From Candidatus Vogelbacteria bacterium CG10_big_fil_rev_8_21_14_0_10_51_16 (GTDB taxonomy: Bacteria > Patescibacteriota > Minisyncoccia > Phycocordibacterales > JACRKE01), in contig PCYI01000021.1 in the NCBI GenBank assembly GCA_002774795.1, positions 350-36,614 on the forward strand: a stretch of 36,265 bases of DNA, in the 5' to 3' direction. Every line of letters starts with the position of its first letter. Position 1 is the first letter of the stretch. A program made the position numbers and the translations under genes. Under the pieces are notes generated by a model that had not been told where the DNA came from, searched no databases, and was given only the letters and a program-made list of their open reading frames with translations. This document shows, piece after piece, positions 9,196-34,296 of this stretch.

Positions 9196-9310
9196 GACTA
9201 CAGTATACCCCGCGGAGTACGAGAGCGCGTGGGGATAGTGCGACCTACTGACTGTGAGTTACGAAATGGCCCCTCCTCCTGGCCGCGGGGAGGAATCGCA
9301 AAGCACCCTC

Positions 9311-9349
9311 CCCCACATCCCCAGCCACTTAGTGACTGGGGATGTGGGG
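9311..9349. repeat. palindromic repeat CCCAGYCACTWAGTGACTGGG family, copy 1
   Basis: ccccacatccccagccacttagtgactggggatgtgggg, 39-bp near-perfect palindrome. Confidence 0.9.
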
Positions 9350-9393
9350 TGGGAGTGTGGTCTTATCTATAACCGACCAAGCACTAGCGCTGT

Positions 9394-11320: not shown

Positions 11321-12760
11321 TCAGCGTGAGCGTCTAAGTGGTTTTTGTTGTCTTAAGCCAAGTCTCCACCTTGGGCGTATCGCCTTAAGGAAACCGGCTT
11401 TAACCGTGGATACATACCGTTCACGTACCACCACTTTTTCATAGAAGTCCAAGAAGGCAGCCGCACGATATACTGCTCGCAATTGCTCGTAGAGGGTTTT
11501 TGGATAACTGTGCCAGAATTCGCCCTCCGGTGCATAAAGATGAGCGTACAATATCTTTCTTCCGTTAAGCCGTGTGGTCAATCGTTCCATCACTCGATTT
11601 ACCTGCACGAACTCTCGATATGCAAGCGCGAGCGGACCCCAGATGCCGACGTTCATGACCCTGCCGGCGCCAATATTCGTCGGGGAGAACGGGTGTACCG
11701 CATCAGTCCGCAACAGGCAAAGCCATAAGGGATAGATACCGAGGTGCTCGTGGGTATGCTCTAGGAGTGCGGTGGTGCGTTCAAGTGGCACGCTGATATC
11801 TTGGACAAAATACTCCTGCGCCGTACCCGTCTCGTGAAGCGCTTGGTAGAACGTCCGAGTGTTCATGATCGGGTTCAAGATAAATCGTGTCAGGCGATTG
11901 AATGGCACGCGGAAGCGATCGAAGGCATACTTCCCGACAAAGAACGCGCCACGGTCGTACCGGAAAAGGTAGTCAATGAGCGGCACCACCTCCTCGCGGA
12001 TCACTCCCGCCCGGCTTATCGTATCGGCGTGCAGCGAAAACCACTCATCATGGGCCCGACAAAAGCGTGCCAAGGGAAGACCGCCGGTTTCGTGACAGCG
12101 CGTACCGAGCATGATGACCCCACGGTCTCTTGCGAAAAGTAGTCCACCAATGAAGTCGACCCCGACGTTGTCCCAATGCTTCTCGGTGACGGCGACCGCT
12201 TCCGAGAAGCTTGCTACCGGGAGGTAGCGAAGTCTGACGTAACGAGTCGCAGGGATCAACCGCAGGCGGATTGCGGTGATTACACCAAGGCTTCCGCAGG
12301 AACCAGGGATTGCGCGAAAAAGATCGGTGTGGCTGCTGGGAGAGGCGGTGACCAGAGCGCCGTCGCCAAGCAGAACGTCGTAGCTCTCACACAATTCATG
12401 GACAAGGCCATGCCGATACGAGCTGCTCTCGCCCGCCCCGCCTGCAATTGCGCCACCCAAGGTGATGTTCGGAAACTCGGGAACGACCGCGGGGACAAGA
12501 CCACGCCTGCCTGTCTCGTACACCAGCTGCTCCATGGTAACTCCCGGCTCAACGAGAGCCGTGTTGCTACCGGGGTCAATCTCGAGCACGTGGGTAAGGG
12601 TTGAGGTATCAATGCTCCGATCCTTGTCAAATCGCTGGGTCCGCGTGCTGTTCGTACTGCCATGGTAGATGCGGACGCCACGAACACCAGCATGATTCAG
12701 GAGACGAAGCTGGTCCTGAAGCACTGCGACTCGTTTTTTGTGCTCGGCACTATTACTCAT
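11321..12760 (-). CDS. FAD-binding oxidoreductase, Delta(24)-sterol reductase (DHCR24)-like
   Basis: VVPEFPNITLGGAIAGGAGESSSYRHGLVHELCESYDVLLGDGALVTASPSSHTDLFRAIPGSCGSLGVITAIRLRLIPA resembles the DHCR24 FAD domain. Confidence 0.85.
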   Translation of the reverse strand: MSNSAEHKKRVAVLQDQLRLLNHAGVRGVRIYHGSTNSTRTQRFDKDRSIDTSTLTHVLEIDPGSNTALVEPGVTMEQLVYETGRRGLVPAVVPEFPNITLGGAIAGGAGESSSYRHGLVHELCESYDVLLGDGALVTASPSSHTDLFRAIPGSCGSLGVITAIRLRLIPATRYVRLRYLPVASFSEAVAVTEKHWDNVGVDFIGGLLFARDRGVIMLGTRCHETGGLPLARFCRAHDEWFSLHADTISRAGVIREEVVPLIDYLFRYDRGAFFVGKYAFDRFRVPFNRLTRFILNPIMNTRTFYQALHETGTAQEYFVQDISVPLERTTALLEHTHEHLGIYPLWLCLLRTDAVHPFSPTNIGAGRVMNVGIWGPLALAYREFVQVNRVMERLTTRLNGRKILYAHLYAPEGEFWHSYPKTLYEQLRAVYRAAAFLDFYEKVVVRERYVSTVKAGFLKAIRPRWRLGLRQQKPLRRSR

Positions 12761-12784
12761 TGCGGGATGATTAGGTTATTCCGT

Positions 12785-14074
12785 TCACCGCACTGTCTCG
12801 TATCCCCCCTCCACCCCATTCGGCGAGAGGACGATTTGCCAGAGCTGGATACTGCGGGCGCGGAAAGCGCCGGCGCAAGCAAGCAGGTAGTAGCGCCACA
12901 TGCGGTGGAAGCGGTCGTCATAGCTGGCAGTCGGGTTCAATCCCACCCCTCCCACCCCACCCCAGCCCTCCTCTCGGGCAGGGGAGGGGGCATACACCCT
13001 GGCCCCAGCACCAGAGCAGAGCTCAGTGCGGGGCACAGCAGGAGAGGGGGTTAAGCCTACGCCCCGCTTACACCACCACCGCTCAAAGTTTTTATGCCAG
13101 GCAATGAGCGTAGTGTTGTAGTCGGGGCCGAAGTTGTGCCAGTCTTCGAGGACGAACAGACCCTCGAGGGCGCGGACCGTCTTTGAGCTTTGAGGAATCA
13201 TGCCGTTTGGAAAAATGTACTTGGTAATCCACGGGTCCACGCCAGAGGTGCGATGGTTATGGCCGATGGTTTGTAGAACAAAGAGTCCTTCCGGCTTGAG
13301 CATCTTTCTGACAACATCGAAGTAGGTGCGGTAGTTTTTGTGGCCGACGTGCTCAAACATGCCGAGCGAAACGATGTGGTCGTATTCACCTTTAACGTCT
13401 CGGTAGTCTTGTAGACGAAACTCGACCTTGTCGGCCACACCAGCCTCGTGCGCTCGCTCTTCGGCGAGCACCACCTGCTCCTTTGAGACGGTCACTCCTG
13501 TGACGCGCACGCCGTACTTCTCGGCAACATAAATGGCAAAGCTTCCCCAGCCGCAACCGATGTCGAGGATGTGTAATGGTTCGCCGTCCTCACTCCGCGT
13601 CCGTTTATCGAGCCCAAGCTTACGGCAGACCAAGTCGAGTTTTGCTTCCTGGGCGGAGTCTAGGTTTTCTGGGACACGCTCGAGATCTTTCCAATAAGCG
13701 CAGGTGTAGGTCATGCGGTGGTCGAGCATGGCCTCGTACAAGTCGTTGCCGATGTCGTAATGCTTCTCTCCCACCTCAAACGCTTTCCCCCTCCGCTGTT
13801 GGTTGGTAAGGCGGGAAAGAAGGTAGGTAAAGAGCGGGGCAATACCGACAATACGACTGTCGAGTTTGGCGCGGAGGATGCGGGCAATCATGTCGTCAAG
13901 CGCCTCACACTCCCACCAGCCGTCCATGTATGCCTCCCCGAGACCGAGCGAACCCCGCGCAAGCAAGCGACGGTAAAGCCGTTCGTCGTGTACTTTAATA
14001 TCAAAAGGACGGGCGCCATTAATTTCAATACCAGCTCCCTCCAAATGCTTCTTTATAATTTCTTTTGCATTCAT
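12785..14074 (-). CDS. cfa: cyclopropane-fatty-acyl-phospholipid synthase family SAM methyltransferase with an in-frame insertion
   Basis: HYDIGNDLYEAMLDHRMTYTCAYW, ILDIGCGWGSFAIYVAEKYGVRVTGVTVSKEQ, MFEHVGHKNYRTYF, MWRYYLLACAGAFRARSIQLWQIV. Likely start MNAKEIIKKH (track ORF extends to 14107). Confidence 0.9.
   Translation of the reverse strand: MNAKEIIKKHLEGAGIEINGARPFDIKVHDERLYRRLLARGSLGLGEAYMDGWWECEALDDMIARILRAKLDSRIVGIAPLFTYLLSRLTNQQRRGKAFEVGEKHYDIGNDLYEAMLDHRMTYTCAYWKDLERVPENLDSAQEAKLDLVCRKLGLDKRTRSEDGEPLHILDIGCGWGSFAIYVAEKYGVRVTGVTVSKEQVVLAEERAHEAGVADKVEFRLQDYRDVKGEYDHIVSLGMFEHVGHKNYRTYFDVVRKMLKPEGLFVLQTIGHNHRTSGVDPWITKYIFPNGMIPQSSKTVRALEGLFVLEDWHNFGPDYNTTLIAWHKNFERWWCKRGVGLTPSPAVPRTELCSGAGARVYAPSPAREEGWGGVGGVGLNPTASYDDRFHRMWRYYLLACAGAFRARSIQLWQIVLSPNGVEGGYETVR
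12923..13072 (-). repeat. palindromic repeat insertion inside cfa
   Basis: 50 residues (CKRGVGLTPSPAVPRTELCSGAGARVYAPSPAREEGWGGVGGVGLNPTAS) replace a linker expected to be about 7 aa between NFERWW and YDDRFHRMW. Confidence 0.8.
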
Positions 14075-34153: not shown

Positions 34154-34296
34154 CTTTGAATTACGAAACTCGTAAAATTACCGTCATTGCGAGGGCTTTA
34201 GTCCGAAGCAATCCAGGAACCGCGACTTATTTTCTGGATTGCCACGGGCTTACGCCCTCGCAATGACGACAGTGAGTAGAGTTTCGTAACTCAAAG
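34154..34296. mobile_element. MITE-like element with TIRs and target-site duplication
   Basis: TIRs ctttgaattacgaaactc / gagtttcgtaactcaaag (17/18 complementary); flanked by TCACATA at 34147-34153 and 34297-34303; inner inverted repeat gtcattgcgagggc...gccctcgcaatgac. Confidence 0.75.

What the first reader, a model, noticed from the sequence alone, without database searches (positions are those of the whole stretch)
12923..13072. In-frame ~43-aa palindromic-repeat insertion inside a cyclopropane fatty acid synthase
The conserved CFA core is interrupted between NFERWW and YDDRFHRMW by KRGVGLTPSPAVPRTELCSGAGARVYAPSPAREEGWGGVGGVGLNPT. The underlying DNA is low-complexity and made of nested inverted repeats (for example gccccgcactgagc...gtgctggggc, and ccctcccctgcccgagaggaggg). 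Its ends look alike (GTAGGCTTAACCCC and GTGGGATTGAACCC). The frame is kept and the downstream CFA motifs are intact. This resembles Rickettsia palindromic elements, which insert in frame into genes and are tolerated as surface loops.
Basis: partly seen in the sequence, partly recalled or inferred. Interest (0 to 1): 0.75.

Follow-up and report, generated by a model that had tools for sequence, protein, structure and literature searches.

The report
In-frame mobile palindrome inside CFA synthase
A small Patescibacteria-like genome carries dozens of copies of a short, palindromic, non-autonomous mobile DNA element; one trimmed copy sits in frame inside a cyclopropane fatty acid synthase gene and adds about 44 amino acids that are predicted to form a floppy loop, and other copies do the same in several conserved genes.

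Summary
The CFA synthase gene (window 14074-12785, minus strand) has an in-frame 132-bp insert (12932-13063, 44 aa). None of 87 homologues has it: they have 6-11 residues there, this protein has 50. The insert is a trimmed copy of a repeat family dispersed over this 0.96-Mb genome (53 merged sites). Complete copies are MITE-like: inverted termini CTKTGARTTACGAAA (126 ends, control 2), G-rich hairpins inside, mostly 7-bp target duplications (17 of 33 copies; 4 of 1056 mismatched flanks). Other copies are in frame in a cysteine desulfurase (two), tRNA-guanine transglycosylase, a histidine kinase and an FAD oxidoreductase (complete copy, exact 7-bp duplication). AlphaFold keeps the CFA fold confident and the insert disordered. 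It works like Rickettsia palindromic elements and intragenic REPs but is not shown to belong to either. The CFA copy has lost its termini, so its own insertion event is inferred. The mobilising enzyme is unknown; Y1 transposase genes inspected have unrelated ends. A lead for the wider repeat class: in related genomes DUF559 nuclease genes are flanked by such palindromes (27 of 29 on at least one side; controls 0), and three genomes carry a palindrome-DUF559-palindrome cassette in frame inside leucyl-tRNA synthetase.

The parts
12785..14074 (-). Cyclopropane fatty acid synthase (CMAS family) gene, 429 aa from ATG at 14074, interrupted in frame
   Evidence: ORF and Pfam PF02353 E 4e-81; alignments with homologues
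12932..13063 (-). In-frame insert, 132 bp / 44 aa (GVGLTPSPAV...GVGLNP): trimmed copy (right half plus nested hairpin) of the dispersed repeat. Exact edges are uncertain by a few codons.
   Evidence: Linker of 50 aa against 6-11 aa in 87 homologues; coordinates; alignment with other copies
12942..12968 (+). C-tract CCCACCCCTCCCACCCCACCCCAGCCC (G4-type motif on the complementary strand), hallmark of the right half of the family
   Evidence: Motif search (the coordinates given here were read); family core pattern found 64 times in the own genome with up to 3 mismatches (overlapping registers included) against 1 for the reversed control
12966..12988 (.). Core polypyrimidine/polypurine hairpin CCCTCCTCTCGGGCAGGGGAGGG
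   Evidence: Sequence; folds
13003..13034 (.). Nested second hairpin CCCCAGCACCAGAGC..AGCTCAGTGCGGGG, shared with copies L002 and L013
34154..34296 (.). A complete element of the same terminal-repeat shell in this window, with 7-bp duplication TCACATA on both sides; its core is a CATTGCGAG/CGCAATGACG palindrome instead of the G-rich one
9252..9360 (+). Terminal repeat CTGTGAGTTACGAAA followed by a G-rich hairpin core; degenerate copy without a recognised second end (right limit approximate)

Best explanation
The insert is a trimmed copy of a MITE-like, non-autonomous palindromic element. The element moves by a cut-and-join reaction that acts on its inverted termini (CTKTGARTTACGAAA) and duplicates about 7 bp of target; the enzyme acts in trans and is not identified (inferred from the termini and duplications of complete copies). 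Most surviving copies are intergenic. Copies inside conserved genes persist only where the added DNA is a multiple of three, is free of stops in the gene's frame and falls in a tolerant loop. In the CFA gene a copy landed in the linker between the helix ending NFERWW and the helix starting YDDRF, kept the frame, and now adds a disordered 44-residue loop. Shown: repeat family, termini, duplications at complete copies, absence from homologues, open frame, predicted disordered loop, other in-frame copies. Inferred: that the CFA copy arrived by the same reaction (it has lost both termini and any duplication), that trimming followed, and that the enzyme still works.
For: Insert absent from 87 homologues. 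33 further related places in the genome. 64 core-pattern matches (control 1), 49 left-half matches (control 0) and 126 terminal-repeat ends (control 2). Target duplications in 17 of 33 complete copies against 4 of 1056 mismatched flanks. In-frame inserts elsewhere: cysteine desulfurase 59 aa against at most 14, and 44 aa against 9, in 22 relatives; tRNA-guanine transglycosylase 39 aa against 2 (maximum 8) in 29 relatives; histidine kinase ATPase domain 144 aa over 108 profile positions; FAD oxidoreductase with a complete 142-bp copy and exact 7-bp duplication, 150 bp in all, ORF 491 aa empty and 541 aa filled. AlphaFold mean pLDDT 85.8, pTM 0.86, only residues 355-382 below 50. Complete copies of 140-143 bp mostly have no stop-free frame (7 of 10), whereas the trimmed CFA insert has 3 of 6.
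Against: The CFA copy has neither terminus nor a target duplication, so its own insertion event is not shown. No genome close enough to show the empty site was found: the one same-family genome searched lacks the gene. No transposase can be assigned. The residue aligned with E. coli H266 (an active-site residue by own knowledge) is Gln here, but 7 of 87 homologues share that, so activity is unproven. In-gene copies other than those in CFA, desulfurase, transglycosylase, histidine kinase and FAD oxidoreductase rest on open frames alone.
Confidence: 0.86

Rival explanations
1. REP/RAYT: the element is a GTAG-type REP doublet moved by the Y1 (HUH) transposases of this genome, with single-stranded excision at hairpins.
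For: Nine Y1_Tnp genes in the genome. Left halves end in GTAG, and paired inverted hairpins resemble REP dimers. Intragenic GTAG REPs are described (PMC3733652).
Against: The five Y1 genes examined for repeats are bounded by palindromes unrelated to this family, and only two of nine loci have a copy within 1.5 kb. Complete copies have long termini and exact duplications, which HUH transposition is not known to make (own knowledge).
Confidence: 0.1
2. DUF559 system: the G-rich palindromes are the non-autonomous partners of DUF559 (Vsr-like PD-(D/E)XK) nucleases, and this genome's copies descend from such a system that has since been lost.
For: In the same order 22 of 29 DUF559 loci have such a hairpin on the left, 22 on the right, 17 on both, 27 on at least one, against 0 of 49 control loci and 0 of 54 displaced windows. 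11 of 14 other genomes with the core pattern have a strong DUF559 gene against 21 of 282 others (Fisher 1e-9; counts read by hand, test). Three genomes carry palindrome-DUF559-palindrome in frame in leucyl-tRNA synthetase.
Against: The own genome, 98% complete, has only a weak partial DUF559 match (E 1.6e-7). The own family's long termini and 7-bp duplications point to a different enzyme for the shell. Linkage is not proof of mobilisation: nuclease genes could insert into existing palindromes. Core-pattern hits and DUF559 hits may be the same loci in some genomes, so the co-occurrence is not independent of the linkage.
Confidence: 0.25
3. Native lineage-specific loop or low-complexity expansion of the CFA gene, not an insertion.
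For: Low-complexity, GC-rich, Gly/Pro-rich.
Against: The DNA is an interspersed repeat shared with intergenic sites and unrelated genes, and homologues all lack it.
Confidence: 0.02
4. Assembly artefact joining a repeat into the gene.
For: Single draft assembly in 30 contigs, with Ns in some other copies.
Against: Frame kept, no Ns at this locus, unique flanks in one gene, and several independent in-frame cases.
Confidence: 0.02

Closest known systems
Rickettsia palindromic elements (RPE; Ogata et al., as reviewed in PMC10969869)
   Same: Palindromic repeats of about 100-150 bp, dispersed, many translated in frame inside conserved genes, argued to sit in tolerated positions
   Different: Different host lineage; long inverted termini with 7-bp duplications; G-rich hairpin core. 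No sequence comparison with RPEs was made.
Intragenic GTAG/CGTC REPs (PMC3733652)
   Same: Inverted hairpin pairs, GTAG at the end of the left half, reported inside DNA repair and replication genes in several bacteria
   Different: REPs are 20-40 bp; here two REP-like hairpins are carried inside a larger terminal-repeat shell with target duplications. That paper lists Proteobacteria, Cyanobacteria, Chloroflexi and the PVC group for GTAG repeats.
Bacterial MITEs (reviewed in PMC10969869)
   Same: Short, inverted termini, target duplications, many copies; in-frame fusions are mentioned in the review
   Different: No parent IS found; the internal cargo varies (G-rich hairpins, CATTGCGAG palindrome, nested hairpins)

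Membership tests
MITE (non-autonomous terminal-inverted-repeat element) | Terminal inverted repeats on short copies without a transposase gene | tested here: met
   33 copies of 69-374 bp bounded by inverted CTKTGARTTACGAAA within two mismatches
MITE (non-autonomous terminal-inverted-repeat element) | Target site duplication | tested here: met
   17 of 33 complete copies against 4 of 1056 mismatched flanks, mostly 7 bp; not seen at the CFA copy
MITE (non-autonomous terminal-inverted-repeat element) | Autonomous relative sharing the termini | tested here: inconclusive
   Longer terminal-repeat pairs (724 bp to 1.8 kb) showed no duplications, and nine inspected loci showed no transposon. No transposase family other than Y1 was searched in the own genome.
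Rickettsia palindromic element | In-frame translation inside conserved genes | tested here: met
   CFA, cysteine desulfurase (two), tRNA-guanine transglycosylase, histidine kinase, FAD oxidoreductase
Rickettsia palindromic element | Rickettsial host | tested here: not met
   A genome of the same GTDB order is a named Parcubacteria group bacterium (the same 412,640-bp contig)
Rickettsia palindromic element | Sequence homology to described RPE families | not tested
   No RPE sequences were at hand to compare
REP moved by RAYT | Y1 transposase gene whose ends are the repeat | tested here: not met
   Five of nine Y1 loci inspected have unrelated palindromic ends; two of nine have a copy within 1.5 kb
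REP moved by RAYT | GTAG tetranucleotide at one end of the hairpin unit | tested here: met
   Left-half pattern ending GTAG, 49 matches with up to 3 mismatches, control 0

The most novel reading that the evidence does not exclude
G-rich polypyrimidine/polypurine palindromes found across bacterial phyla, including the one in this CFA gene, are the mobile partners of DUF559 nucleases: a palindrome-plus-nuclease system, parallel to REP/RAYT but with a Vsr-like enzyme, that spreads between genes and also settles in frame inside essential genes such as leucyl-tRNA synthetase.
Probability: 0.3. Interest if true: 0.85.

Novelty: new variant of a known kind. Interest (0 to 1): 0.62.

Why it matters
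Protein-coding palindromes are mostly discussed in Rickettsia. Here a similar process, with clear transposon hallmarks, acts in a tiny Patescibacteria-like genome and is seen in housekeeping genes, including directly after the CxCxxC cysteine cluster of tRNA-guanine transglycosylase. A complete copy with an exact duplication inside a gene makes the entry route testable. If the DUF559 link holds, a widespread class of orphan bacterial repeats gains a candidate enzyme.

Tried and rejected
RAYT as mobiliser: unrelated ends at the five Y1 loci inspected. Rfam: no family reaches its gathering score in 12700-13300. Autonomous parent by long terminal-repeat pairs: none with duplications. Intein or intron: 44 aa is too short for an intein (own knowledge), and no intron family was found by Rfam. 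DUF559 in the own genome: only a weak partial match. Empty-site search for DUF559 cassettes in plasmid records: no clean empty site among the records listed. Papers joining Candidate Phyla Radiation with MITE or REP, or Patescibacteria with in-frame palindromes: none in the open library. The 14 DUF559 papers were judged by title and abstract start, and one was searched for palindromes without result. An earlier count said all 12 plasmid DUF559 loci have palindromes; that was a reading by eye, and the scored result is 9 of 12.

Full report
Observation. The minus-strand ORF at 14107-12785 is a CFA/CMAS enzyme. Between W334 and Y385 it has 50 residues. In 87 homologue sequences (8 from the same order by genome search, 79 from named genomes, at least one genome in both sets) this linker is 6 residues in 76 cases and 7-11 in the others. 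The best estimate is a 132-bp insert at 12932-13063.

Family. blastn of the region against its own genome (958,550 bp, 30 contigs, 98% complete) gives 34 places including itself. Pattern searches with controls give 64 core matches (control 1), 49 left-half matches (control 0) and 126 terminal ends (control 2). The hits for which loci were fetched merge to 53 sites. The canonical copy is terminal repeat, hairpin, G-rich tract ending GTAG, centre, C-rich tract, hairpin, terminal repeat. A second terminal-repeat type (GGGTATTCTGGGTTTCCTGTGGG) is present in a few copies.

Termini and duplications. 33 copies under 400 bp are bounded by inverted termini within two mismatches. 17 show a duplication at the chosen score against 4 of 1056 mismatched-flank pairs. 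The commonest length is 7 bp. One complete copy in this window (34154-34296) has TCACATA on both sides; its core is a different palindrome (CATTGCGAG...CGCAATGACG), so the shell carries more than one kind of palindrome.

Other genes. Cysteine desulfurase: 59 aa where 22 relatives have at most 14, and 44 where all have 9. tRNA-guanine transglycosylase: 39 where 28 of 29 relatives have 2 and one has 8. The histidine kinase ATPase domain match spans 144 aa for 108 profile positions. The FAD oxidoreductase carries a complete 142-bp copy with the 7-bp duplication CCCTTGT; joining the flanks in a script to show the empty site gives a 491-aa ORF, against 541 aa with the element. Further cases (DinB, a GNAT protein, two LTD/surface-type proteins, one unknown) are from open frames only.

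CFA copy. Aligned with other copies it corresponds to the right half plus a nested hairpin, with homology fading in the centre on one side and just inside the right terminus on the other. No terminus or duplication remains. I infer loss by deletion or a half-element event. Complete copies of 140-143 bp mostly lack any stop-free frame (7 of 10), whereas this trimmed insert has three, which fits selection on what a gene can carry. Three open frames are not unusual for its composition (55% of shuffles do as well), so the insert is not specially coding.

Structure. AlphaFold with 40 sequences gives pLDDT 85.8 and pTM 0.86; only residues 355-382 fall below 50, between helices 316-336 and 387-405. 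Surface exposure was not computed. The nearest solved relative by score is the CFA synthase 6bqc, E. coli by own knowledge. The position aligned with its H266 is Gln here, as in 7 of 87 homologues; enzyme activity is untested.

Mobiliser. Nine Y1 transposase genes exist, but the five inspected have their own unrelated palindromic ends. No other transposase family was searched in the own genome. The enzyme is unknown.

Distribution. The canonical element is found in 2 of 297 genomes of the order at E 1e-8, the other at 74% identity (only the top candidates per genome were scored). The core pattern with up to 2 mismatches occurs in 15 of 297, most often in this genome (34 matches; next 8). Several of those sites in other genomes are also read through in frame, for example in polynucleotide phosphorylase, a UvrB-like protein and leucyl-tRNA synthetase (the UvrB name is from the sequence alone).

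DUF559 lead. Strong DUF559 genes in the order have hairpins of this kind within 300 bp: 22 of 29 left, 22 of 29 right, 17 both, 27 at least one; 0 of 20 desulfurase and 0 of 29 transglycosylase control loci, 0 of 54 displaced windows. Leucyl-tRNA synthetase of three genomes contains palindrome-DUF559-palindrome in frame at the same site (L290, L303, L304), and a fourth (L283) has a palindrome only. Outside the order I fetched 12 of the 36 plasmid records with a match (loci). By the same detector 9 of the 12 are positive on at least one side (6 on both sides, 3 on the left only); Pseudanabaena, PCC 7002 and Novosphingobium are negative, and all 24 far windows are empty. By eye those three negatives also have G-rich inverted repeats nearby, but that was not a scored test. 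The 12 were my selection, not a random draw. An in-house detector rule (8-nt all-pyrimidine arm with at least 5 C, one mismatch, loop 2-14) was set after I had seen the first loci, so the rule is not independent of the first set.

Limits. One draft genome; no reads; no close relative with an empty site; in-gene versus intergenic status judged from open frames without a gene finder; some copies contain runs of N.

Noticed in passing
L296-L325 (DUF559 loci in the same order): DUF559 genes flanked by polypyrimidine/polypurine palindromes: 22/29 left, 22/29 right, 17/29 both, 27/29 at least one side, against 0/49 control loci and 0/54 displaced windows.
   Followed up: partly
L290, L303, L304; L283: Palindrome-DUF559-palindrome cassette in frame inside leucyl-tRNA synthetase at one site in three genomes; palindrome-only remnant in a fourth.
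   Followed up: partly
L326-L337 (plasmid and chromid records): Twelve DUF559 loci from Cyanobacteria, Deinococcus and Alphaproteobacteria: the hairpin detector is positive in 9 (6 both sides, 3 left only) and negative in Pseudanabaena, PCC 7002 and Novosphingobium; far windows all empty.
   Followed up: partly
window 34154-34296: Same terminal-repeat shell with a CATTGCGAG/CGCAATGACG palindrome as cargo and TCACATA duplications: one shell, different palindromes.
   Followed up: partly
L018, residues after CTCSVC: tRNA-guanine transglycosylase carries about 37 extra aa directly after its CxCxxC cysteine cluster, before YTRAYLAHLF.
   Followed up: partly
L162:1183-2679: Cysteine desulfurase with two separate in-frame repeat inserts in one gene.
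   Followed up: partly
L040-L048: Nine Y1 transposase genes in a 0.96-Mb genome; the five inspected have their own distinct palindromic ends.
   Followed up: partly
window CFA residue 268: Gln at the position aligned with His266 of E. coli CFA synthase; 7 of 87 homologues share it.
   Followed up: partly
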